Source: Agapetus fuscipes (Eukaryota > Arthropoda > Insecta > Trichoptera > Glossosomatidae). From it: a DNA stretch of 64,000 bases. Below are positions 11,882-46,785 of the stretch, piece after piece. The position numbers and the translations under genes are program-made. Under the pieces are notes generated by a model, which saw nothing but the letters and a program-made list of their open reading frames with translations, made no database searches and was not told the DNA's origin. Location: contig OX637332.1 in the NCBI GenBank assembly GCA_951799405.1, positions 17,675,001 through 17,739,000 on the forward strand, read 5' to 3'. Each line of letters begins with the position of its first letter. Position 1 is the first letter of the stretch.

Positions 11882-14279
11882 TCAATCCTGGGATTGGTTT
11901 GCAGCAATATCTTGTACTCTTGATCTCCATTCCTCCCTGTCTTGTGCGGCTCTTTTAAGCTCTGCATATGTTGAGCAGCGCACGTCCACCAGCAGGTCCT
12001 CCAGGTACTCTTGGCGTGGGCGTCCCCTAGAGTTGGTTCCCTCGGTCATCCCCTCCATTATGGCATGCAAGAGACCTTCTTGCCGTATTACATGGCCGAT
12101 CCATCTTGCACGCCTTTCGGACAAAGTCCTGAGCAGGTGCCTTCCTCCTTGGATTCTTTGGAGAACCTCCTCATTTGTGGTGTGGTCTCTCCAGGAAATT
12201 CCTAGAAGCCTTCTATACGACCACATCTCGAAAGCCTCTAGTCTTCGTTTATCCCTTTTGGATAGGCACCATGTCTCGCAGCCGTACATCAAAATACTCC
12301 ATACATATGTTTTGATGAGGAGTAGTCTCAGTTTCAGGTCTATGTTGTTTGATTCTATTATTTTTGCTTTTTTATTAAATGCAAGTCTAGCCTGGTGTAT
12401 ACGGCTGTCGATGTCGCTCTTTGACCGTCCGTCCCACGTTATTTTACTGCCAAGGTAGACAAACTCCCTTGTGTTCCCCAATGGCACTCCTGACATAACT
12501 ACTCCCATCCGATGCTGCACTCGGCCCACAGTTAGCAATTTTGTTTTGTCTTTATTTATCTTCATATTGTAGTTATTTTGGAGAATGCTTTCCATAGTTG
12601 TTAAGGCCTCCTGCAGTTCTTCTTCACTTTCAGCAACCATAGCAATATCGTCAGCAAACCTTATCATATCCACCTTTTCACCGTGTATCCTTACACCTTT
12701 TTTGTGGCTCATTCTTTCTCGCAAGTCATCGATCGCACTTTGTATATAAGCGTTAAAGAGAAGAGGTGACAGAGCGCATCCCTGTCTTACCCCTTGTCTT
12801 ATATTAGCTTCCTTTGTGTCATCGTCACATCTGATTATGGCGGTCTCATTCTTGTATAGCACCTGGATTATACGTCTATCTCTGTATTTTATATCAATTT
12901 TCTTCAAAGTCTCGAAGAGTTTTCTCCATTCTACTTTGTCAAAGGCTTTCTCCAGGTCTATAAATGCGATGAACGTGTTTTGGTTTCTTTTTATTCTCTT
13001 TTCTAGTAGCATTCGTAAAGACAGTATTGCTTCTCTGGTTCCTACACCTCTTCTGAAGCCACATTGGTCTCTGGAAAGAATGCTCTCTACTTTTGGTTCA
13101 ATTCTCTTCAGAATGATATTAGTCAATATTTTTGAGGCATGGGATATTAGGTTGAGAGTTCTGTGCTGTTCACACTTTGTCGTACCTGCCTTCTTTGGTA
13201 ATGTGACAATTAGGCATTTCTCGAAGTCCGCTGGTATCTCTCCAGTTTTATATATTGTCTGTATCATTCTAAACAGGGCATCTGTGGTTCCTTTTCCTGC
13301 TGATTTAATTAGTTCGGCTGGGACGTCATCGATTCCGGGTGCTTTACCGTTTTTGAGTTTTTTTAGTGCGAGGTCAAACTCTTCTCTAATGATTGGATCT
13401 CCCAGATCGTCCTCGTCTACCTCATTTTCTCTTTCTATCAATGTTTCGCTGTCAATATTAACCTTGCCATTGTACAACATTTCGAGATATCCTTTCCATC
13501 TCTCTCCTATTTGGTCATTTTCGAAAAGAATTTTGCCGTCTTCTCCTTCTATTGCATAGCCCTTTCCAATTCTCATCCCAAAGAAATCTTTCACCGCAGC
13601 GTGAGCTTTTTCTACATTTCCTCTCTTGAGGTCGTCATTTATCTTTTTGCAGTTATTCTGGTAGTATGTTTCTTTTGCAATTCTTGACTCTCTGTTTATT
13701 TTATTTCTTAGCACTTTGTATTTCTCTTGTGATTCAGCTCTTGTATCATTTTTGAGCTCTCTTCTTTCTTTTATCATATTTAGAATTTCATCAGTTATCC
13801 ATTCCTTCCTTGCTTGGGGTCTTTCCCTGCCTACAATTTCCTCTGCCGTAGTTTTTATCTTCGACTTTATCTCTTCCCAGATCGTATTCACGTTCTCCTC
13901 TTCCATTAGGTGGCATTCTTGTGTCTTTTCTCTAAAAGTGTCATTGACTTCTTTTGTCTCTAATAGTTTTGTATCCCATTTGAAATTATTTTTATTTTTT
14001 ATTTTTTTCAGTTTTAGAAGACTTTTGGCCATTACCATATTATGATCAATATCTATATCGGGGCCGGGATAACTTCTACAGTCTTTTATTTGGTTTTTAA
14101 ACCTATATCTAACCATTATATAATCTATTTGCAGTCTTTGTCGATCTCCAGGGGATTTCCAGGTATATCGCTGTCTTGGGTGGTGTTGAAAACAAGTGTT
14201 TGCTCTTATTAATTTGTGTTTTTCGCAGAATTCTGTCAATCTGTTTCCTCTGTCATTTCTTGCACCTAGCCCAAAAGGC
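11882..14279 (-). pseudogene. LINE endonuclease C-terminus and reverse transcriptase
   Basis: An 822-residue open frame. The first 24 residues are read from the inserted solo LTR and are not native; native coding starts at about residue 25 (PFGLGARN). The end of the AP-type endonuclease follows, with IDYIMV near residue 75 and DHN at residue 102. The reverse transcriptase spans about residues 335-610, with the first catalytic Asp in FIDLEKAFD (D465), RQGVRQGCALSPLLFN, and FADD at 565-568 supplying the other two Asp. The C-terminus has the ...RWIGHVIR...GRPR pattern common in RTE-like and 'craniofacial development protein 2-like' insect elements. It would copy the element's RNA at a nicked target. 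The reading frame is open and the catalytic residues are present, but the endonuclease is cut off. Confidence 0.9.
14276..14279. repeat. Left target duplication AGGC
   Basis: AGGC abuts the TGTAACG end of the solo-LTR-like element and is repeated at 14535-14538. Confidence 0.8.
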
Positions 14280-14534
14280 TGTAACGAGATGGATTTGTTT
14301 GTTAGGTAAAATGGAACATGAGATTTGAATTTGAATGAAAAGGAAAACAAAGGAATGCAGAAAGAGGAAGAAGCTTGCCTGGCGTGAGAGCCAGAAGCAT
14401 GTGAATTTTGTTATAATTAATATTATTGTGCTGTGGTTGTGTATACATTGTGAAAGAAATAAAAGTAAACATATTAAAGTGGCTGTTAATTATTAATTGT
14501 GTCAATCAGCAGGACTAGAAGAAAAACCCTCACA
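14280..14534 (+). mobile_element. Solo-LTR-like element, copy 2, inside LINE
   Basis: 255 bp with ends TGTAACG...CCTCACA (TGT...ACA), flanked by a perfect 4-bp duplication AGGC. Removing the element and one AGGC joins the two endonuclease parts in frame. A possible AATAAA poly(A) signal lies near 14458-14463. Copy 1 is at 7149-7407. The ends and the 4-bp duplication fit an LTR made by recombination of a Gypsy- or BEL-type element. The parent element is not in this window. Confidence 0.8.
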
Positions 14535-34297: not shown

Positions 34298-34510
34298 CAT
34301 CTGTCCAAGGAAGACTTGTTGAATTTTGTCGGATCATTGGTTGATCAAAGGGACAAAATTCAAATCGACACCCTTCAATCCAGAGGAGAATATGCCTCTT
34401 TCAAATTGACACTTAACCAAGACGCATTTGAAAAAGTGTTCAAGCCTGAAGTCTGGCCAACAGGAGTACTAATTAACAGGTACTTTATAGAAAAAAAAGC
34501 TAAAAAATGA
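34298..34510 (+). pseudogene. LINE ORF1, C-terminal remnant
   Basis: An open frame bounded upstream by TGA at 34295. Its end (YASFKLTLNQDAFEKVF, then WPTGVLINRYF) matches the C-terminus of gag-like ORF1 proteins of Jockey/CR1-type LINEs, which bind the element's RNA. It lacks the zinc knuckles and most of the usual length, so the LINE is 5'-truncated. Its stop overlaps the ORF2 start as ATGA (34507-34510), which suggests ORF2 is normally translated by termination and re-initiation. Confidence 0.65.
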
Positions 34511-37419
34511 ACTTAAAAATTTTGTATCAAAATGTGCGTGGACTCAACACAAAAACAGGCATTTTTCTGCATAATGTTCTCGCACAAAATAATGATATTA
34601 TAGCCCTGACCGAAACATGGTTAAACGCCTCTGTACTGTCGCCTGAGCTGTTTGACGGTAGGTACACTGTGTTCAGGCGGGACAGAGGAGCGCGTGGAGG
34701 GGGGGTGTGCATAGCAGTGCGGTACCCGCTCGTGGCGCAGAGACAACCACAACTGGAGAGCGACGGCGAAAACTTATGGATCAAGATTACCAGCAACCAC
34801 GTCTCCTTTTACTGTTGTGTGGTGTATTTCGACTGCAGAGAGGCCCATCAGGCCCGAAGTGACTTTTATGATTGCCTTGATAGGAGTGGTCAAGCTCTAC
34901 AGAGTAAACGTATACTTATCTTGGGAGATTTTAATCTTAATAATGAGAGCGATTCTGTCCTGCTTGACTACTCTTATTTCTTAAGTGCTAATAATTTAGA
35001 ACAGTGTAATACAATCAAAAATGGCTACAACAACATGCTTGATTTAGTAATTAGTAATAAAAATATATTATGTAAAGTGGTGCGCTGCCTGGAGCCCCTA
35101 GTGAGTGAAGATCGCCATCACCCCACGCTTGCAGTCACCGCGAGGCTGAATACTACGCCTCTGGCCTGTGGACGACTGCAAGCACATCCCAGATCCACTC
35201 CTAGCGACGATAGGCATATAAATAATATTCACAATGTGGATAATAATAATTTTAATATTAATGATACCGACTTTGACTATATATTTAGGTGGAACAAAAT
35301 AATTAATTTTAAGTACTTAAACACTGATAGATGTAAGAATATACTTAGTTTTTATGATTGGTCTGACCTATATAATTGTAAACATATTGATACCGCTGTA
35401 AAATACTTTTATAATGTTTTATTGAAAATATGTAATTTGTGTGCTCCATGTAAAAAATACGCTGCCAAATGTAACTCCACTTACCCAGTATGGTTTAATA
35501 GTAGCATCATTGCTAATATCAAGTGTAAGGAACGCTTGCACAAAAATTACTTAAAAAATAAAAGTGTAAGCAATTATAAGGCTTTCTCTACAAAGAGAGC
35601 GCAAGTTAAACATAATATAAAGGAAGCACACAAATTGTATATGAGTAAGATTCAGACTGGGATAGGATGTGATTCCAAGGAATTCTGGTCTTATATCAGA
35701 TCCAGCAAGACCGGTGGTAATACAACTTTTCAGCTTTCTGATGGAGATCAGATTATATCTGATCCCAGAATAATATCGGAAACTTTTGCTAAGTATTTCC
35801 AATCGGTCTACAGCACCCAGACCCCTCACGTAGATTTATCTGAGTCCCCCCATGGTAAGCACGAGCAATCTTCCATATCACTCAGTCCTTTTTCTTTGAC
35901 TGAGGTGGAGACTTATCTGCTTGGATTAAAATCCAATAAAGCAACTGGCCCTGACAACATTCCCCCGAGAATTGTATCTTCTATGGCTAAGCCCCTTGCT
36001 CAACCCTTATGTTTCATCTTCAACTTATCCCTGAAGACATGTACATATCCATCAGCCTGGAAGATAACAAGAGTCATGCCAGTACATAAGTCAAATGATA
36101 AAAGTGATGTTAGAAATTATAGGCCGATTTCTATTTTATCAAGTTTCGCCAAAGTGTTTGAGTGCTTGATACACAAAAACCTTATGTGGCAAATCAAGCC
36201 CCGAATCAACATACACCAACACGGATTTCTGCCCAAGAGATCCACAGTATCAAATCTACTCACCCTCAGTAGAAATATTGCCCTCAACTTGGATTCTCGC
36301 AGGCAAACTGATGTAATATATACAGATTTCTCCAAGGCGTTTGATCGTGTGAATCATGATGTTCTTTTGAAGAAGATGGACGATTTTGGTTTCACAAAAC
36401 CTCTCTTAATCTTTTTCTCTTCATTTCTTAAAAACAGAAGCCAATTTGTGCAAATAAATGACCAACATTCGGCTAATTTTTTTCCAACTTCAGGAGTTCC
36501 TCAAGGCTCTAATTTAGGCCCTCTAGCCTTCATTGTGTTCATTAACGACATTGCGGACAAGATCAAAAATAGTTCTTGTCTTCTTTACGCTGATGACATG
36601 AAAATTTATACAGAAATCAAGGATTTTCAAGACTGTATTAATTTACAGATGGATTTGAACTCTCTGCTGATGTGGTCCAATAATAATGGATTGAACTTCA
36701 ACATTAGCAAGTGTTCTGTCATGTCATTCACAAGATCCGCTTGTCCCATAATCCATGAGTACAGTATTGGTGGGTCGATACTGGCTCGTGTCTTTTCATT
36801 TAGGGACCTGGGCGTAGTTTTTGATCCTGGTCTGAAGTTTACAGAACATATAACGCAGTTGACGACCAAATGCTACCAGTTATTGGGCTTTGTGATCAGA
36901 ATTAGCAATAATTTTGAGTCACCGAGAGCTATGGTGGATGTCTTCAACTGTATTGTACGTTCTAAATTAGAGTACGCTGTCGAGGTTTGGGCCCCGTATC
37001 AGCGGAAGTATGTAGATCTTTTGGAGCAAATTCAAAAAAAGTTTTTGAGGTACCTCCTCATGAGAATACATGGGAATTATCCCAAGTTTATGCACCATGA
37101 GGAATTACTTGAGAAAACCAGCTCCAGGAGCCTGGAATCTCGGCGCAACGGTTCTCTTATGGTGCTTTGTTACAAGATCATTAACGGCTTAATTGACAGC
37201 CCCACCCTGTTAGAGAGTTTTGAGCTTTATGTGCCAGATGGCTACGGCCGGGGAAGACGGCATGAACTTTTTCATGTACCGCTGTCCCGTACCGACGTCA
37301 TGGCACAACATGCCTTAACTCGGAGTGTTACTCTGATTAATTCCGCTGACATAGACATTTTTTACATTAACTTAGAATCATTCAAAGATCTAGTTAAAGA
37401 GCTCCTCCCAGCTTGTTAA
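34507..37419 (+). CDS. LINE ORF2: endonuclease and reverse transcriptase
   Basis: An intact 970-residue frame. Residues 1-230 form an AP-type endonuclease, with QNVRGL at the start, ETWL with E36, GDFNL at 140-144, and the SEDRHHP Asp/His pair near 202-204. The reverse transcriptase covers about 465-760: GLKSNKATGPDNIPP, RPISILSSFAKVFE, D607 in TDFSKAFDRVNHD, GVPQGSNLGPL and YADD at 694-697. The C-terminal region is Cys-poor, with HHEELLEK and a final LKELLPAC-like end. It would nick target DNA and prime cDNA synthesis from it. The motif set places it in the Jockey/CR1 group. It lies in the sense direction within SCYL2 intron 1. ORF1 is truncated, so the protein could work in trans only if expressed. 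Confidence 0.92.
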   Translation: MNLKILYQNVRGLNTKTGIFLHNVLAQNNDIIALTETWLNASVLSPELFDGRYTVFRRDRGARGGGVCIAVRYPLVAQRQPQLESDGENLWIKITSNHVSFYCCVVYFDCREAHQARSDFYDCLDRSGQALQSKRILILGDFNLNNESDSVLLDYSYFLSANNLEQCNTIKNGYNNMLDLVISNKNILCKVVRCLEPLVSEDRHHPTLAVTARLNTTPLACGRLQAHPRSTPSDDRHINNIHNVDNNNFNINDTDFDYIFRWNKIINFKYLNTDRCKNILSFYDWSDLYNCKHIDTAVKYFYNVLLKICNLCAPCKKYAAKCNSTYPVWFNSSIIANIKCKERLHKNYLKNKSVSNYKAFSTKRAQVKHNIKEAHKLYMSKIQTGIGCDSKEFWSYIRSSKTGGNTTFQLSDGDQIISDPRIISETFAKYFQSVYSTQTPHVDLSESPHGKHEQSSISLSPFSLTEVETYLLGLKSNKATGPDNIPPRIVSSMAKPLAQPLCFIFNLSLKTCTYPSAWKITRVMPVHKSNDKSDVRNYRPISILSSFAKVFECLIHKNLMWQIKPRINIHQHGFLPKRSTVSNLLTLSRNIALNLDSRRQTDVIYTDFSKAFDRVNHDVLLKKMDDFGFTKPLLIFFSSFLKNRSQFVQINDQHSANFFPTSGVPQGSNLGPLAFIVFINDIADKIKNSSCLLYADDMKIYTEIKDFQDCINLQMDLNSLLMWSNNNGLNFNISKCSVMSFTRSACPIIHEYSIGGSILARVFSFRDLGVVFDPGLKFTEHITQLTTKCYQLLGFVIRISNNFESPRAMVDVFNCIVRSKLEYAVEVWAPYQRKYVDLLEQIQKKFLRYLLMRIHGNYPKFMHHEELLEKTSSRSLESRRNGSLMVLCYKIINGLIDSPTLLESFELYVPDGYGRGRRHELFHVPLSRTDVMAQHALTRSVTLINSADIDIFYINLESFKDLVKELLPAC

Positions 37420-38155: not shown

Positions 38156-38159
38156 ATAT
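38156..38159. repeat. Gypsy target duplication, left (ATAT)
   Basis: ATAT abuts the left LTR and recurs at 45203-45206. Confidence 0.8.
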
Positions 38160-38622
38160 TGTTACGAAATTAGGGTTCAATTGTCTTCAAATTAAAAATA
38201 CACAGGTCTTCTTCAATAGTTATTTATTTTACACAGTTACAAAATTTATTTTCACACTACTTTCTCGATTATTCCACTTGGTTTTGGTTCACTGATCAGA
38301 TGACTTCGATGTGTTTGTAAGTCTCTATGATACTGGCGCTCTGCAGGCCATTCCCACCCTTTATACTCTTTAGAGTAGTATGATCTAGACCTAAAGTCGC
38401 TAGACGGTTCGAGCAATTATTACTTCTCGATGATTCACGTACTACCTAGACACAACCAAAATCCTACCTACAAATGTAATACAGTATTCCTATAATTATA
38501 ACAAATACCTACTTAGCCTAGAGAATTCTTATAACTATAACTATCCATACTTATTTCAATATTTATATTTACATAACACTATAACTACCCATACTTATTT
38601 CAATATTTATATTTACATAACA
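38160..38622 (-). repeat. Gypsy 3' LTR
   Basis: 463 bp, TGTTACGAAA...ACATAACA. I see no difference from the 5' LTR by eye. The end nearest the coding region contains a tandem duplication of about 45 bp (TACCCATACTTATTTCAATA-type unit). Confidence 0.95.
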
Positions 38623-38636
38623 CTACCCCCCACCTA
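38623..38636 (-). promoter_or_regulatory. Polypurine tract
   Basis: On the minus strand, AGGTGGGGGGTAG directly precedes the 3' LTR and would prime plus-strand cDNA. It includes the last glycine codons and the TAG stop of the gag-pol frame. Confidence 0.8.
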
Positions 38637-41600
38637 GACTGTTTCGTCCCGGAACAGTCTTGACTCTGTGTAGGTAGGGGCATGCTGATCCACGTCGACA
38701 CCCTGTGGTCAGGAAGAAGTGGCAGTCCACGGATTTCTCCCCACTGGCTCTCGGCTGCGCTTGCTCGCAGCACACCATGACGCTGATGCCGACTCCCGAG
38801 AATACTGCTTCAATCATACTCCGGATTATCCGCCAGTCTCGATTAGCGCGGCCGCCACCCATCTTCGGTATTGCCAGACGCGCCTGCTGATCCTCCAACA
38901 TGTAGTCACGCAGCTCAACAAGGCCGTCCCACAATGCCTTGTAGTCCTCTTCCAGGTTGCTGGAATCCGGGACAACCAGGCAGTATGCTTGTTGACGCCC
39001 CTTCGGTAGTCTCAGAGCTCTTCCTTGCGGGCTGCTCGAGGGTTGCGGTTCTCCGAATTTGTATCGGAAGACCCGTGCAATTCCTCTAGACATATCTAGA
39101 TCTTCCGGTACACTGCATGCCAGTGTGTGGTCCCTAGTGACCTCAAATAAGTCCTTGTGGACTTCTGTGGTCACTCCATGGCGAAACTTCTGCCCTGCCT
39201 TCGCGTTCTCCCAAAACGTCTCAAAGGCTGGTGATCTTTCGGATGCGACGCACTGTCGTACTTTTTGGGCTGGTTGGTCATCATTATCGCCTAGGTATGG
39301 TGAGAGGCGATTGTAGTGCACGACCCTTGGTTTTCCGTTTGGTCTCTTTTTTATGCGGTAGACCACATCGTTGATGCGCTCCAAGATCTCGTACGGCCCG
39401 TCCCAGGAACGCTGAAGTTTCGGACAGTATCCTTGGCGCCTCTTGGGGTCAAAAAGCCACACCCAGTCACCAGCTTTGTACCCCATGCTGTCAGCTCTGG
39501 TGTCATAGCGCTCCTTCATTTGATCGCTGGCTTCCCCGATGTTCATGCGGACCTGATCATGGATGTCATCCAGCCTCCTGCGAAGGTCTGTCACATAGTC
39601 TTCTCCGGCTAGGTCTTCACCTGGTTTGCAGCCAAATTTGAGATCACAAGGAAGTCGCATTTCTCGCCCAAACAGTATGCTGCTGGGAGTCTTCTTCGTC
39701 GTTTCCTGAACAGCCGACCGGTAAGCCAATAAGAACAAAGGCAGATGTCGGTCCCAGTCCCGCTGATGGCTGGACACTACTTTGGCTAAGTACCTCCCCA
39801 CGGTACGGTTCATCCTTTCCACCATTCCATCAGACTGTGGATGTAGCGCAGTGGTCCTGGTCTTGTAGATCCCTAGCCGCTCACACATTTGCTGGAAGAT
39901 AGCAGCTTCAAAGTTCCTTCCCTGATCAGAATGTAATTCCAGGGGTACGCCAAACCTGCTGATAAATTCGGTAACTAGCACTTCAGTCACGGTTACGGCC
40001 TCTTGGTTAGGGATTGAGTAAGCTTCCACCCACTTGCTGAAGTAATCCATCACCACCATGATGTACTTGTTACCCTTCTCAGTTGTAGGAAATGGGCCAG
40101 CTATGTCGATGGCAATTCTTTCAAAGGGGCTGCCAACATTGTACTGACGCATTGGTGCTCGCCTTTTCCTTTGCGGTCCATTGGCCGTTGCACAGGTTAC
40201 ACATTTTCGACACCAATCTTTGACGTCTTCGCTGCAGTTGATCCAGTAAAATCGCTCTTTCACTTTCTCCAGCGTCTTCTTAACGCCTAGATGTCCTCCA
40301 GAAGTTCCTCCATGCAGCAGTCCAAGGATTTCCGGTACTCGGCTCCTCGGAACGAGGGTTTGCTTTCTTCTAAGTGTGCCATCTTCCTTCTCGATCTTTC
40401 GTTTCAGAAGCCCTCCTTCTATCACTATGGATCCCCATTGAGCCCAATAAGCCTTGACAGTTGGTGATAAGGGGGCGAGTTTCTCCCAGGTTGGCCTTTC
40501 TCTTTCTCGCGCCCATTCCATCACATACTTCAAGTCCGGATCATTCAGTTGGTCTTGCGCCAATTTTTCATCTTGCCAGTCCTCATCTTCGGTGGTCGTC
40601 CTTTGGACAATTGCTACCTTGTCCTCCATCCTGCTGCAATGTTTGCAGTCACTGGCGCATGGTCGTCTGGATAATGCATCCGCATTTCGATGAAGCGTGC
40701 CAGGTCTATGTTCGGAGTCATAATCATACTCCTGGAGCCTTTCAATCCATCTAGCCACTTGCCCTTCTGGGTTTTTGAATTTCAGAAGCCAAACCAGTGC
40801 AGCATGATCAGTCCGTAGTGTGAATTTTCTCCCGTACAAGTATTTGCGGAAGTGTTCCACTGATTTTATCACGGCAAGAAGCTCTCGTCTGGTCACGCAA
40901 TAATTTCGTTCTGGCTTGGAAAGCACTTTACTGAAGTAACCCAGAACAGTCTCATGCCCATCCTGTATTTGGGAAAGGACACCTCCTATCCCCACATTAC
41001 TAGCGTCGGTATCCAGGATGAATTTTCCATCTTTTCGTGGGTAGCTCAAGATTGGGGCACTCGTTAATCTTCCCTTAAGCTCTTCAAATGCTTGTGCGCA
41101 GGAATCACTCCAGTGGAAGCGAGTGTTTTCTTCCGTAAGCTTGGTGAGCGGTTTTGCAATGTCCGCAAATCTTGGCACAAACCTCCTGTAATAAGTGCAC
41201 AGCCCCAGGAAACTCCTAGTTTCATGTTTGTCCTTCAGCACGGGCCAGTCTCTTACTGCCTTGATTTTAGCAGGGTCAACCTCAACTCCACGTTGAGAAA
41301 CTATGTGTCCCAAGTAATTTACTTGTTTCTTGAACAGGTTACACTTTTTCGGGTTGAGCTTCAGTCCAGCGTCTTGTAGTCGCCCGAAAACTTGCTCCAG
41401 ATTTCTCAACTGATGGTTGAAGTCCTTTCCTAAGATGATTATGTCATCCAAATATACAAGGCAGGTTTCCCATGACAGTCCTCGCAGCACATTCTCCATC
41501 AGCCTTTCAAACGTGGCGGGGGCATTGCATAAGCCAAATGGCATCACGGTGAACTGCCAAAGTCCAGATCCAGTCGAGAATGCAGTTTTCTCCTTATCTT

Positions 41601-44055
41601 TGGCTTCCAATTCAACTTGCCAGTAGCCACTTTTCAGGTCCAATGTGGAAAAAATGGTGCATCCTGCCAATGTATCCAAGGTGTCGTCAATCCTTGGCAG
41701 AGGGTAACTATCCTTTTTCGTAACATCGTTGAGCAGTCTATAGTCCACACAAAATCTCGTGGTACCATCCTTCTTTTTCACCAGTACAACCGGGGATGTC
41801 CAAGGGCTACTTGATGGTTCTATGATGCCATCCTTGCTCATGTCTTTGATGATCTTGTCGGCTTCTTCCCGCTTTGCAAAGGGTAGTCTTCTTGGAGCCT
41901 GTTTGATTGGTCTTGCTTCTCCGGTGTCTATGCTATGTCGCACTACCTTGGTTCTTCCCAGACGGCCATTAGAGTCCTCGAAAATGTTCTGGTAGCGGCA
42001 GATCAAACTCCTCACTCTAAGTCTGTTTTCCTCGGTTAGACCTTGGGAAGCGTCGTGGACCAGGGCTTCCAATTGTGTCGATAATTTTCTTCCCTCGCAT
42101 GTCATGTTTGTCATCTGTTGCACAATGGAAGTTATCCTCTCACATCTGCCCAAAACAAAACCTTCATTCATTTTAACTGGGTAGCTGTTCACATTCATGA
42201 TCTTGACAGGAATGGTCTCCTGCGCGCGAATCACTGTTCTTGCCACCATGACTCCTTTGTTAACATTGTCCATGTTCTCCGGTTCTATCATACAGATTTG
42301 GTCATTTGTACTACTGGAATCCAGGCGGGCACTCACTATCATCTCGGATCGCCCCTTCACTTCGGTATTCTTGGCTAGGATCACACGTGCAGCCAGTTCT
42401 TTCCGTCTTTGCAGGATGACTTCTTCATTTTCAATTTTAATGGCACCTTTTTTTAAATTTAAGCTGCACCCAAATCTGTCCAGTATGTCCATTCCCAATA
42501 TAACGTCTTCTTCAATGTTGGCCACCAACGTCCGATGATCAAAAGTGGTGCTGCCAATTTGGAAGGTGGCAATCGTCTCCCCATACACCTGTGCTGACTC
42601 TCCCGTGGCGGTGTGCAGAGACCACTTTGTTGGTGCAATCTGCTTACCTCGTGCCACTATGTCGCGTCTCAGAATTGTCCTGGTTGCTCCCGTGTCCACC
42701 AGTAGTTCACGGGTTACTCCATCTATTATGCCATTGATAAAAATGCTGCTGGCTTTTCCTCTCACAGTTGCGACAGTAGCAGCAGATTGTTTTCTGGGTT
42801 TCTGAGGCTTGGGACACTTGGTGCTAAGGTGGCCCAGCTGTCCGCAGTTCCAGCAGCGTGGGTCTCGTCTTCGAGGTCTCAGACGTTCCAGCACTTTTTC
42901 AATTAGCTCCTCGGTTGTAGGTAGCTTGACCTCCTCTGCCTCGACTGCACGAACCCTGGCGTGGCCCCTGATGGACTGTTTGACAGCCTCAAACTCGAGA
43001 GCTTGGCTGAGCGCCTCGTTCAAAGCCTTGGGATGGGCCAGTTTTACGGCTTGTTGCGTCTCCCATTCCCGCAATCCATTTAGGAACTTGTCCACTGCCA
43101 AGCTCTCACAGATGTCGTCGGAGGCTGTCGGGTAAGCGTCTCGTACCAGGCGGGCGATGTCCATTTCAAACTCCTGGAGGCTCTCGTTGGGCTTCTGCAC
43201 CCTTGTGTTCAGCTGCGACTTGTACAGCTGCTCCAGGCACTTGTGGCCATAGCGCATATCCAAGCGCTGCTTCAGCTGCCCAAAGTCACCACGGTTGTCC
43301 AGGGGTATGGCCTGCAGAACCCTGAGAGCGTCTCCTCGGAGCGACAGGCTGAGAACCGAAGCCTTCTTCTGCTGGCTCCAGGCTCCCATCATGGCAGCCG
43401 TCTCAAAGAGGGTCAAATACTCCTCCCACGACGTCTTCCCGTCGAAGGTCGGAAGGTTGTGCTTCGACAGCGAAGGGTCGTCATCCCCTCTAGTGACCCT
43501 GGTTGGAGTTGAGCATCCCTGGTCGGTCTCGTCGTGAAGGCCGTCTTTGGGGGATATTCTGGTGGACTCCATCTGGCACTTGTCAGCCAGCTCGGCACGC
43601 AGACGATCCTCCAGGCTTGCCACACGGGCCTCAATCTCCGACATTGCTCGCGAGCTTTCTGCCACTTTCTTCTCCAGCCCGGCTAGGTTGCTGGTCATCT
43701 TCTCCTCCAGCCCAGTCATCTTCTCCTCCAGGGTCTTGGCGTTGTCAGCCATCTCCGCCTTCAGGGTCTTGGCGTTGTCAGCCATCTCCGCCTTCAGGTC
43801 TTCCCTCAGGGTCTTTGAATTGTCGGCTAGCTCCTCCTTCATAGACTTTGTGATGCTGATATTTAGCTCGTCCAAGGCGCGGTCTCCCCCAGATGCCATG
43901 ACAAAGTATGCTGGGTCTTCGCCTGACTGTTCTAAGGCCTCCATGAGGCGTGCCTGTAAGGCCGCCTTCCCTCCTGAGGTCTCCAGGTCCCTCTCCAGAA
44001 GCTCATTTTTAAGCTCAGTGACTTTGAGGTCCTTGATGTTCACTTTGGTTGCCAT
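38623..44055 (-). CDS. Gypsy gag-pol with SAP, macrodomain and CCCH finger
   Basis: 1810 residues. SAP-like helix-loop-helix at about 5-42 (LKVTELKNELLERDL, then GGKAALQARLMEAL); coiled coil at 65-160 with ADNAKTL repeats; capsid-like Gag at 197-360; CCHC knuckle 401-414 (CWNCGQLGHLSTKC); aspartic protease with DTG at 454-456; reverse transcriptase 740-915 with YLDD near 868-871; RNase H from about D1015; integrase with an H-H-C-C head (about 1248-1285) and D1317, D1377, E1413 (D-x35-E); a GPY/F-like module near 1553. Beyond the usual end, residues 1625-1765 resemble the OARD1-type macrodomain: DLFEVTRDH, DMSRGIARVFRYKFG, AIPKMGGG and WRIIRSMIEAVF. Then comes C-x7-C-x5-C-x3-H at 1778-1796. 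Gag and Pol share one frame with no shift. Macrodomains bind or cleave ADP-ribose, but the expected Asp after the glycine loop reads Ala, so binding is likelier than hydrolysis (inference). Which Gypsy clade it belongs to is unresolved. Confidence 0.93.
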   Translation of the reverse strand: MATKVNIKDLKVTELKNELLERDLETSGGKAALQARLMEALEQSGEDPAYFVMASGGDRALDELNISITKSMKEELADNSKTLREDLKAEMADNAKTLKAEMADNAKTLEEKMTGLEEKMTSNLAGLEKKVAESSRAMSEIEARVASLEDRLRAELADKCQMESTRISPKDGLHDETDQGCSTPTRVTRGDDDPSLSKHNLPTFDGKTSWEEYLTLFETAAMMGAWSQQKKASVLSLSLRGDALRVLQAIPLDNRGDFGQLKQRLDMRYGHKCLEQLYKSQLNTRVQKPNESLQEFEMDIARLVRDAYPTASDDICESLAVDKFLNGLREWETQQAVKLAHPKALNEALSQALEFEAVKQSIRGHARVRAVEAEEVKLPTTEELIEKVLERLRPRRRDPRCWNCGQLGHLSTKCPKPQKPRKQSAATVATVRGKASSIFINGIIDGVTRELLVDTGATRTILRRDIVARGKQIAPTKWSLHTATGESAQVYGETIATFQIGSTTFDHRTLVANIEEDVILGMDILDRFGCSLNLKKGAIKIENEEVILQRRKELAARVILAKNTEVKGRSEMIVSARLDSSSTNDQICMIEPENMDNVNKGVMVARTVIRAQETIPVKIMNVNSYPVKMNEGFVLGRCERITSIVQQMTNMTCEGRKLSTQLEALVHDASQGLTEENRLRVRSLICRYQNIFEDSNGRLGRTKVVRHSIDTGEARPIKQAPRRLPFAKREEADKIIKDMSKDGIIEPSSSPWTSPVVLVKKKDGTTRFCVDYRLLNDVTKKDSYPLPRIDDTLDTLAGCTIFSTLDLKSGYWQVELEAKDKEKTAFSTGSGLWQFTVMPFGLCNAPATFERLMENVLRGLSWETCLVYLDDIIILGKDFNHQLRNLEQVFGRLQDAGLKLNPKKCNLFKKQVNYLGHIVSQRGVEVDPAKIKAVRDWPVLKDKHETRSFLGLCTYYRRFVPRFADIAKPLTKLTEENTRFHWSDSCAQAFEELKGRLTSAPILSYPRKDGKFILDTDASNVGIGGVLSQIQDGHETVLGYFSKVLSKPERNYCVTRRELLAVIKSVEHFRKYLYGRKFTLRTDHAALVWLLKFKNPEGQVARWIERLQEYDYDSEHRPGTLHRNADALSRRPCASDCKHCSRMEDKVAIVQRTTTEDEDWQDEKLAQDQLNDPDLKYVMEWARERERPTWEKLAPLSPTVKAYWAQWGSIVIEGGLLKRKIEKEDGTLRRKQTLVPRSRVPEILGLLHGGTSGGHLGVKKTLEKVKERFYWINCSEDVKDWCRKCVTCATANGPQRKRRAPMRQYNVGSPFERIAIDIAGPFPTTEKGNKYIMVVMDYFSKWVEAYSIPNQEAVTVTEVLVTEFISRFGVPLELHSDQGRNFEAAIFQQMCERLGIYKTRTTALHPQSDGMVERMNRTVGRYLAKVVSSHQRDWDRHLPLFLLAYRSAVQETTKKTPSSILFGREMRLPCDLKFGCKPGEDLAGEDYVTDLRRRLDDIHDQVRMNIGEASDQMKERYDTRADSMGYKAGDWVWLFDPKRRQGYCPKLQRSWDGPYEILERINDVVYRIKKRPNGKPRVVHYNRLSPYLGDNDDQPAQKVRQCVASERSPAFETFWENAKAGQKFRHGVTTEVHKDLFEVTRDHTLACSVPEDLDMSRGIARVFRYKFGEPQPSSSPQGRALRLPKGRQQAYCLVVPDSSNLEEDYKALWDGLVELRDYMLEDQQARLAIPKMGGGRANRDWRIIRSMIEAVFSGVGISVMVCCEQAQPRASGEKSVDCHFFLTTGCRRGSACPYLHRVKTVPGRNSLGGG

Positions 44056-44721: not shown

Positions 44722-44738
44722 TCCGCACCTGACGCCAA
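44722..44738 (-). promoter_or_regulatory. Primer-binding site
   Basis: On the minus strand, TGGCGTCAGGTGCGG begins two bases inside the 5' LTR. The TGG start complements a tRNA CCA end. I cannot name the tRNA with confidence. Confidence 0.75.
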
Positions 44739-44739
44739 T

Positions 44740-45202
44740 TGTTACGAAATTAGGGTTCAATTGTCTTCAAATTAAAAATACACAGGTCTTCTTCAATAGT
44801 TATTTATTTTACACAGTTACAAAATTTATTTTCACACTACTTTCTCGATTATTCCACTTGGTTTTGGTTCACTGATCAGATGACTTCGATGTGTTTGTAA
44901 GTCTCTATGATACTGGCGCTCTGCAGGCCATTCCCACCCTTTATACTCTTTAGAGTAGTATGATCTAGACCTAAAGTCGCTAGACGGTTCGAGCAATTAT
45001 TACTTCTCGATGATTCACGTACTACCTAGACACAACCAAAATCCTACCTACAAATGTAATACAGTATTCCTATAATTATAACAAATACCTACTTAGCCTA
45101 GAGAATTCTTATAACTATAACTATCCATACTTATTTCAATATTTATATTTACATAACACTATAACTACCCATACTTATTTCAATATTTATATTTACATAA
45201 CA
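44740..45202 (-). repeat. Gypsy 5' LTR
   Basis: 463 bp. On the minus strand a TATAAAG box (about 44939-44945) and an AATAAA signal (about 44807-44812) give the usual U3-R-U5 layout. It reads as identical to the 3' LTR. Confidence 0.95.
44939..44946 (-). promoter_or_regulatory. LTR TATA box
   Basis: GTATAAAG on the minus strand, about 880 bp upstream of the gag-pol ATG. It is a good candidate core promoter; the start site is not visible. Confidence 0.55.
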
Positions 45203-45206
45203 ATAT

Positions 45207-45835: not shown

Positions 45836-46081
45836 GGGGGCCGACCGTACGCCAAGTACTTCAGTTCAAGTGGAAGTTGCCCTGTTTCCGAAAGGGCTGG
45901 TTCTCATTGTTTGTGAAGGCTGTGTAAGCCTTATCAGTACCTTTGTTGTTTTGAATTTAAAAATTAAAACTGAAACATAAATTCATTTCTGACACCCTTG
46001 TTGTGAATCGAACCCTTGCTCTCGGCATGGAATGCAAGATAGCCACGATAACACAAGACTACCTCTGAGCTATGTCCGGAC
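45836..46081 (-). repeat. SINE family S1 copy
   Basis: Minus-strand S1. The left part has AGTACTTCAGTTCAAGTGG; the head is at the right, with GTGAATCGAACCC and GAGCTATGTCCGGA. The A-box side has a short insertion (GATAACACAAGACTACC). Confidence 0.75.
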
Positions 46082-46115: not shown

Positions 46116-46410
46116 AGGATGATTTATTTGGTGAGCGCTGTTTTTGTGTGTATCACACCTCAAGAGCCCTCTGCGAGCTTGGTCGACGCTGTAGAAAGCG
46201 CCAATTCTCAAACAAGACCCAGTTGTTGTAAGGTTGGATGGACCTTTCAGTGACCGGTCTTTGGTAAAGACTTATGAATTTTTCAACTCAGCGAAGAGCA
46301 CATTCGAAATATAAATGGTACATTTTTGTGCTCCGCCGGGATCCGAATCCACAACCTTCCATTTACGAGTCCGAAGTGTTGCCACTACGGACTGCGGACC
46401 GGTCCAAGAT
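46116..46410 (-). repeat. SINE family S2 body joined to 5S rRNA
   Basis: Minus-strand S2. The tRNA-like head ends at GGACCGG and runs through ATCTTGGACC straight into 5S rRNA sequence at 46411. The same junction (GGTCCAAGATGCCAAC) occurs at 58329-58344 and 58555-58570. Confidence 0.85.
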
Positions 46411-46527
46411 GCCAACGACACGCGGTGTACCTGAGCGGTCACCCATCCAAGTACTGTCCGCGCCCAATGTTGCTTAACTTCGGTGATCTATGGGAACCGG
46501 TGCTTTCAACATGGTAACGTCGTTGAC
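46411..46527 (-). rRNA. 5S rRNA-like sequence, head of chimeric SINE
   Basis: On the minus strand it runs from GTCAACGAC to GTCGTTGGC, and these ends pair as 5S helix I with one G-U. Internal 5S blocks are present: GATCACCGAAGTTAAGCA, GTACTTGGATGGGTGACC and GGGCGCGG. It is about 117 nt, close to the 5S length. Because it runs on into a SINE, and truncated copies of the junction occur elsewhere, it is a SINE head supplying a type 1 pol III promoter rather than a ribosomal gene. Confidence 0.8.
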
Positions 46528-46601: not shown

Positions 46602-46785
46602 TCGGTCCATAGCTCGGTTGGTAGAGTGCTTCCATTCCATGTCGTGAGCCCGGGTTCGAATCCCACCGAGGGTGTCAGAAATTATTTCCCATTTCGGTGT
46701 TTATCAGAAAATAAAATACCGACAAGGTTTACTCGGCCTTTATAAGAAATTAGTACCAGCCCCCTCGGGAGCTTTAACATTATAT
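46602..46785 (+). repeat. SINE family S1, 5' part
   Basis: Has an excellent tRNA-like head (TAGCTCGGTTGGTAGAG and GGGTTCGAATCCC), then body to CCCTCGGGAGCT. The 3' part is lost. Confidence 0.85.

What the first reader, a model, noticed from the sequence alone, without database searches (positions are those of the whole stretch)
38761..39183. Macrodomain-like region at the C-terminus of a Gypsy gag-pol
Seen: gag-pol continues about 200 residues beyond the integrase GPY/F-like module. Residues 1625-1765 follow the order of an OARD1/TARG1-type macrodomain (DLFEVTRDH, DMSRGIARVFRYKFG, AIPKMGGG, then an RSMIEAVF helix). Known: macrodomains bind or remove ADP-ribose, and some viruses use them against PARP-based defence. 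Inference: this retrotransposon captured a cellular macrodomain, perhaps to blunt host ADP-ribosylation or to target modified chromatin. I know of no such element with confidence.
Basis: partly seen in the sequence, partly recalled or inferred. Interest (0 to 1): 0.93.

Follow-up and report, generated by a model that had tools for sequence, protein, structure and literature searches.

The report
Jumping gene with ADP-ribose-binding-type tail
A very young and abundant insect jumping gene carries, fused to the enzyme that pastes it into chromosomes, a domain of the kind cells use to recognise or remove ADP-ribose marks, and another type of jumping gene in the same genome carries such a domain at a different place, which hints that these marks matter for how jumping genes move.

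The parts
38156..38159 (.). target-site duplication ATAT, left copy (right copy 45203-45206)
   Evidence: flanks read
38160..38622 (-). 3' LTR (463 nt, ends TGTTA...TAACA)
   Evidence: 463/463 identical to the 5' LTR; repeats
38626..38634 (-). polypurine tract GGTGGGGGG; it encodes the last three residues and is followed by the TAG stop (38623-38625) directly at the LTR
   Evidence: sequence
38668..38724 (-). CCCH zinc finger, C-x7-C-x5-C-x3-H
   Evidence: Pfam zf-CCCH 21.6 bits, cut-off 20.5; CPSF4 fingers in PDB search; also in group B, 19.5 bits, just under cut-off
38773..39168 (-). macrodomain of the ALC1-like class, closest to OARD1/TARG1
38845..38847 (-). codon at the TARG1 Asp125 position: Ala
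   Evidence: alignments; coordinates
38851..38859 (-). Gly-Gly-Gly at the TARG1 G121-C122-G123 positions (phosphate-loop role recalled)
38968..38970 (-). codon at the TARG1 Lys84 position: Pro
39169..39258 (-). linker and predicted helix before the macrodomain
   Evidence: model
39295..39471 (-). integrase C-terminal SH3/p58_C (GPY/F-like) module
   Evidence: Pfam PF22938, PF24626
39850..40128 (-). integrase core (rve)
   Evidence: Pfam PF00665 E 3.5e-16
40726..41112 (-). RNase H
   Evidence: Pfam PF17917, PF17919
41299..41781 (-). reverse transcriptase
   Evidence: Pfam PF00078 E 1.7e-37
42475..42738 (-). aspartic protease
   Evidence: Pfam PF13975 E 4e-11
42808..42858 (-). CCHC zinc knuckle
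   Evidence: Pfam PF00098
43066..43353 (-). retrotransposon gag region
   Evidence: Pfam PF03732 23.3 bits, just under its cut-off 24.1
43930..44037 (-). SAP domain at the Gag N-terminus
   Evidence: Pfam PF02037 E 8e-9; weak PDB hits, best E 0.005
38623..44055 (-). single gag-pol ORF, 1810 aa, including stop
44723..44737 (-). primer-binding site TGGCGTCAGGTGCGG (primer tRNA not identified)
   Evidence: sequence next to the 5' LTR; placed by hand
44740..45202 (-). 5' LTR (463 nt)

Best explanation
This is a structurally complete, very young Ty3/Gypsy LTR retrotransposon of an insect. Pol ends in an integrase with an extra reader module: a macrodomain of the ALC1-like/TARG1 class plus a CCCH zinc finger. 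Identity of the macrodomain: shown, about 0.97. Most likely mechanism, inferred: the macrodomain has lost TARG1 catalysis but kept the ADP-ribose pocket. As part of integrase it would bind mono-ADP-ribose or the end of a poly-ADP-ribose chain and tether the integration complex to ADP-ribosylated chromatin, for example at breaks or open chromatin marked by PARP enzymes. The CCCH finger would add nucleic-acid contact. Chromodomains on chromovirus integrases are thought to work this way with a different mark. The confidence given is for this mechanism as a whole.
For: Sequence and fold. Position right after the integrase SH3/p58_C module, in frame; in Ty3 a chromodomain C-terminal to the CTD contacts TFIIIB and target DNA (passages of PMC8632968). 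Family B has the same IN-macro-CCCH order and, in the one copy looked at, a SAP-type Gag start: macro 50% and integrase 80% identical; macro pN 0.335 vs pS 0.720, Fisher 1.4e-11. D20, M40, G43, P118, G121, G123 (TARG1 numbering; pocket roles recalled) are kept in the window copy and in the 5 B rows tabulated; Lys84 is Pro (window) or Arg (B), Asp125 is Ala in both, while 39 of 39 compared OARD1-like proteins keep both. ALC1-like macrodomains include readers as well as erasers (passage of PMC7050489). 150 of 150 scored copies have an identical 211-aa end, so the module travels on a successful element.
Against: No binding or targeting was measured. SCO6735, an ALC1-like hydrolase, is active without Lys84 and Asp125 (PMC9411070), so loss of the dyad does not prove loss of activity. 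C122 is Gly. dS is near saturation between the two families, so only pN below pS is safe. The model was built on an alignment with 39 OARD1-like rows; a model from P0001 and P0003 alone reached only pLDDT 46.8. I did not test insertion-site preference.
Confidence: 0.42

Rival explanations
1. Counter-defence: the domain binds and masks, or by a divergent mechanism removes, ADP-ribose that host PARP-type enzymes place on particles, Gag/Pol, RNA or cDNA ends, as viral macrodomains are thought to do.
For: Alphavirus nsP3 macrodomains are among the fold matches. Group A Gypsy elements carry a TARG1-type macrodomain with Lys84 and Asp125 kept (7 of 7 rows) and selected (L030 vs L033 pN 0.149, pS 0.717), as an eraser would need. 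SCO6735 shows hydrolysis without the dyad.
Against: In the window family Lys84 is Pro and Asp125 is Ala; in B Arg and Ala. The domain sits on integrase rather than in a separate protein. I did not search for PARP-based restriction of insect retrotransposons.
Confidence: 0.27
2. The macrodomain fold is kept for another job, such as RNA or DNA binding or integrase multimerisation together with the CCCH finger, without ADP-ribose.
For: Catalytic dyad lost; CCCH fingers are nucleic-acid binders (recalled); group C keeps a degenerate macrodomain without the G43-A45 and GxG loops in the 4 rows tabulated, so some Gypsy elements retain the region after pocket loss.
Against: In B and the window copy the glycine loops and D20 are conserved, which a purely structural role would not require.
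Confidence: 0.22
3. Passenger: a captured host fragment with no function, kept only because the element is young.
For: In this family alone there is almost no divergence to test selection: 7 of 8 copies differ from the window copy by one and 1 of 8 by two silent changes in 633 nt.
Against: Family B shares the module at 50% identity with clear purifying selection and an intact zinc finger pattern; a passenger would have decayed.
Confidence: 0.05
4. Artefact: false homology to macrodomains or a mis-joined assembly.
For: Pfam Macro does not hit P0001 at E up to 1 nor the B piece at E up to 0.01.
Against: OARD1 hits at E 7e-11 and, for B, 2e-18; 150 of 150 scored copies on many contigs; an ENA contig encodes P0003, 99% identical.
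Confidence: 0.02

Closest known systems
TARG1/OARD1 (C6orf130), ALC1-like macrodomain class
   Different: No Lys84/Asp125 dyad; C122 is Gly; fused to integrase; followed by a CCCH finger
Chromoviruses (Gypsy elements with a chromodomain at the integrase C-terminus; abstract of PMC3605345) and the vestigial Ty3 chromodomain
   Same: Extra module placed after the integrase SH3/GPY-F module, in frame with Pol
   Different: The module is a macrodomain plus CCCH finger; no chromodomain hit in Pfam; the mark would be ADP-ribose
Fish epsilon-like endogenous retroviruses with macro-domain ORFs (Basta et al. 2009, seen only as a sentence in PMC4977317)
   Same: A retroelement that carries a macrodomain
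   Different: Retroviruses, with macro domain proteins in additional ORFs according to that sentence; class of macrodomain not seen by me
Alphavirus nsP3 macrodomain
   Same: Macrodomain in a viral polyprotein (recalled); among the structural matches
   Different: About 11-18% identity in those matches; belongs to RNA viruses
Group A and C Gypsy elements in the same genome (L029-L037, L059-L062, L064, L065)
   Same: TARG1-like domain inside a Gypsy polyprotein
   Different: Located between RNase H and integrase in the copies read; A keeps the dyad, C has lost the glycine loops; no CCCH finger reported next to it in L033

Membership tests
Ty3/Gypsy LTR retrotransposon | LTRs, target duplication, PBS and PPT at the LTR edges | tested here: met
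   463/463 LTR identity, ATAT duplication, PBS and PPT read directly
Ty3/Gypsy LTR retrotransposon | gene order Gag-PR-RT-RNase H-IN | tested here: met
   Pfam on pieces; the Gag model itself is just under its cut-off
ALC1-like macrodomain class (TARG1) | sequence and fold closest to TARG1 | tested here: met
   the model's alignment contained OARD1 rows, the sequence match did not depend on it
TARG1-type ADP-ribosyl hydrolase | catalytic Lys84 and Asp125 | tested here: not met
   Pro and Ala in the window copy; Arg and Ala in 5 of 5 B rows; dyad as given in PMC9411070 and PMC7050489
ADP-ribose reader | binds ADP-ribose | not testable with these tools
   glycine loops and D20 kept; needs an assay
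Pfam Macro PF01661 | score over the curated cut-off | tested here: not met
   no hit for P0001 at E up to 1, none for the B piece or the group A piece of L033 at E up to 0.01; the group A piece of L017 reaches 24.3 bits, cut-off 22
Chromovirus | chromodomain at the integrase C-terminus | tested here: not met
   no chromodomain among Pfam hits of P0001 or P0002 at E up to 1; a vestigial one as in Ty3 could escape a sequence search
Retrovirus/errantivirus | env gene after pol | tested here: not met
   the pol stop codon abuts the 3' LTR, leaving no room
CCCH zinc finger | C-x7/8-C-x5-C-x3-H over cut-off | tested here: met
   21.6 bits, cut-off 20.5; in B 19.5 bits, just under

The most novel reading that the evidence does not exclude
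Insect Gypsy elements recruited ALC1/TARG1-class macrodomains at least twice, as an active eraser between RNase H and integrase in one lineage and as a dead reader with a CCCH finger on the integrase tail in another. In the second, ADP-ribosylation replaces histone methylation as the chromatin mark that guides integration, so the element lands at PARP-marked sites.
Probability: 0.25. Interest if true: 0.93.

Novelty: new variant of a known kind. Interest (0 to 1): 0.8.

Why it matters
It would add a new class of integrase tether, one that reads ADP-ribose, and would link PARP signalling to where retrotransposons insert. Or it would show retrotransposons countering host ADP-ribosylation. Two placements of the same domain class in one genome, one with and one without the catalytic dyad, make the question directly testable with short purified domains and natural insertion maps.

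Tried and rejected
Donor of the domain: a tree of 14 rows was saturated (end branches 10 and 9.41 for the two TE domains; p-AU 0.535 for holding them as one clade), so single or repeated capture is not resolved. Identity of the window domain to the host OARD1 is 27%, to the other OARD1-like rows 23-31%.

Relatives elsewhere: viral contigs and genome contigs (bacteria and archaea) gave none for P0001, viral contigs none for the group A piece. The protein database gave only P0003 for P0001 and nothing at E up to 1 for the last 191 residues within a 611-aa piece. Proteins over about 1070 aa were outside the length range of both searches, so annotated full-length relatives in other insects were not tested.

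Structure control: P0001 with P0003 only gave mean pLDDT 46.8, not usable. Within-B substitution counts were dropped because the integrase piece shows 459 nonsynonymous differences against 19 synonymous, which I put down to frame-broken copies without checking which; in the same count the macro piece had 29 synonymous and 23 nonsynonymous and the CCCH piece 0 and 18. The pairs L031/L037 and L030/L032 were nearly identical and not informative. L061 was sent in a wrong frame and the whole call was rejected; I sent the other four again. Host: 66 matches to PF02949 (its insect-specificity is recalled), so an insect; the order was not established, since the marker query did not complete.

Papers: ten searches were answered (one search was an input error). 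Eight of them (10, 24, 26, 34, 67, 75, 76, 115) joined macrodomain, macro domain, A1pp or OARD1 with transposon words. I saw the listings (titles and starts of abstracts) and opened passages of PMC4977317, PMC8195603 and PMC5982333; none of this showed a macrodomain in a Gypsy element. The other listed papers were not opened for this question. Other passages opened: PMC9411070, PMC7050489 and PMC8632968. The library lacks most subscription journals and two wanted papers.

Full report
What is there. The long ORF at the site is on the minus strand, 38623-44055, 1810 residues. It lies between two identical 463-nt LTRs (463 of 463 positions) flanked by ATAT, with a primer-binding site beside the 5' LTR and a polypurine tract at the 3' LTR. 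The purine tract encodes the last three glycines and the TAG stop touches the LTR, so the C-terminal module is the last coding part of the element and there is no room for env. Pfam on separate pieces gives, in order, a SAP domain, a Gag region (just under cut-off), a CCHC knuckle, protease, RT, RNase H, integrase core and the SH3/p58_C module.

Catalysis. In the TARG1 literature Lys84 and Asp125 form the catalytic dyad (passages of PMC9411070 and PMC7050489; the second writes Glu125). I aligned 39 OARD1-like proteins, out of 119 listed besides P0003 and 3369 matched: all 39 have both residues; the window copy has Pro and Ala. D20, M40, G43, P118, G121 and G123 are kept, C122 is Gly (their pocket roles are recalled). 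So the pocket looks retained and the TARG1 chemistry lost. SCO6735 is a warning: it hydrolyses without the dyad, with Gln85 needed at the Lys84 position.

The family. The window lies in a 618-Mb assembly of 148 contigs. P0001 found 1409 candidates; the 150 scored are all 100% identical over 211 residues, and the rest were not scored. In eight fetched copies the 633 nt differ from the window copy by one silent change (7 copies) or two (1 copy). So this is a burst of recent copies. By my hand count 111 of the 150 rows have an open frame of 1422 residues and 6 have 1834 or more; the window copy has gag and pol in one frame. I looked at the gag/pol junction in eight copies, five picked from rows of 1420-1422 and three from long rows: the five are 68 nt longer than the window copy with open runs in different frames, the three read through. 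That is not a frequency. The host is an insect: 66 matches to PF02949, none in the 14 control genomes.

Not alone. A search with another Gypsy macrodomain found 87 matches among 150 scored of 947 candidates. I sort them by score and identity and read only part of them. Group A (9 places including the query's own; the other eight 72-74% identical; L029-L037) has a TARG1-like domain between RNase H and the integrase zinc finger in the copies read. The L017 copy matches OARD1 at E 2e-19 and Pfam Macro over cut-off; the L033 piece gave no Pfam Macro hit. Lys84 and Asp125 are kept in 7 of 7 A rows tabulated, while D20 is Ser there. Group C (9 places) has the same position but a degenerate domain without the G43-A45 and GxG loops in the 4 rows tabulated. 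Group B (55 places by score, including a few that are cut short) has the window architecture: integrase with SH3/p58_C, macrodomain, CCCH finger, stop, OARD1 E 2e-18. About 4.6 kb upstream of one B macrodomain lies a Gag start 56% identical to the window's first 100 residues, SAP region included (the stretch between was not read). Ten weak matches fit the window family by score; they were not read. A further subfamily (X, 71-82% alike over its better matches, most with stops) appears around C4:1391661. Three places are host OARD1 exons with the dyad; there G121 is Ala in the row tabulated. The host gene has an intron inside the domain, the elements do not.

Selection. Between the window family and B the macrodomain is 50% identical over 132 codons, the integrase 80% over 390. 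Over 143 macrodomain codons pS is 0.720 and pN 0.335 (Fisher 1.4e-11). Within group A, L030 vs L033 gives pS 0.717 and pN 0.149 (3.6e-22); pN/pS is 0.21, as in its RNase H piece (0.20), and two further A pairs give 0.24 and 0.21. Synonymous change is near saturation, so I claim only that replacement change is held down. Counts within B were not usable (see Tried and rejected). The domains therefore look like working parts in at least two Gypsy lineages.

How it most likely works. Shown: identity, position, conservation, selection, dyad loss. Inferred: the module binds ADP-ribose and, as part of integrase, steers or holds the integration complex on ADP-ribosylated chromatin. The placement after the SH3 module is where chromodomains sit in chromoviruses (abstract of PMC3605345), and in Ty3 a vestigial chromodomain there contacts TFIIIB and target DNA (passages of PMC8632968). 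A SAP domain on Gag points the same way, towards chromatin (SAP function recalled). Rivals are masking or erasing of defensive ADP-ribose, and a nucleic-acid or multimerisation role without ADP-ribose. Group A, with its dyad kept, favours an eraser role there; group C shows that the region can persist after the pocket is gone.

Novelty. Macro domain proteins in extra ORFs of fish epsilon-like retroviruses are on record (one sentence of PMC4977317, citing Basta et al. 2009, which I could not read). Chromodomain integrases are well known. Eight paper searches showed no report of a macrodomain inside a Gypsy Pol in the listings and the three papers whose passages I opened; the library lacks most subscription journals. 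I therefore call it a new variant of a known kind.

Noticed in passing
L017 5479-4874 (-), L030-L037, L059-L062, L064, L065: Other Gypsy groups carry TARG1-like domains between RNase H and integrase: group A with the catalytic dyad kept, group C with the glycine loops lost.
   Followed up: partly
43930-44037 (-) and L070 from 422: SAP domain at the Gag N-terminus; a group B Gag start is 56% identical to it over 100 residues.
   Followed up: partly
about 42400-43300, L021-L028: Gag/pol junction varies: five copies picked from rows with 1420-1422-residue frames are 68 nt longer than the window copy with gag and pol in different frames; three picked from long rows and the window copy read as one frame.
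   Followed up: partly
46410-46527 (-): 5S rRNA-like sequence (Rfam RF00001, 91.7 bits) about 1.2 kb from the element's end, between tRNA-SINE-like stretches near 45990-46080 and 46608-46680 (these by eye).
   Followed up: no
34507-37419 (+) and 11882-14350 (-): Non-LTR-type retrotransposon ORFs: endonuclease plus RT (970 aa) and RT (822 aa).
   Followed up: no
L018, L019, L020: The second coding exon of host OARD1 occurs at three places (C52, two on C31), nearly identical, so apparently duplicates.
   Followed up: no
L009, L011, L016 (G000:C7:18649444-18651198): Exons of a second host macrodomain gene with a MacroD-like GGGGVDGAI motif (the label is recalled).
   Followed up: no
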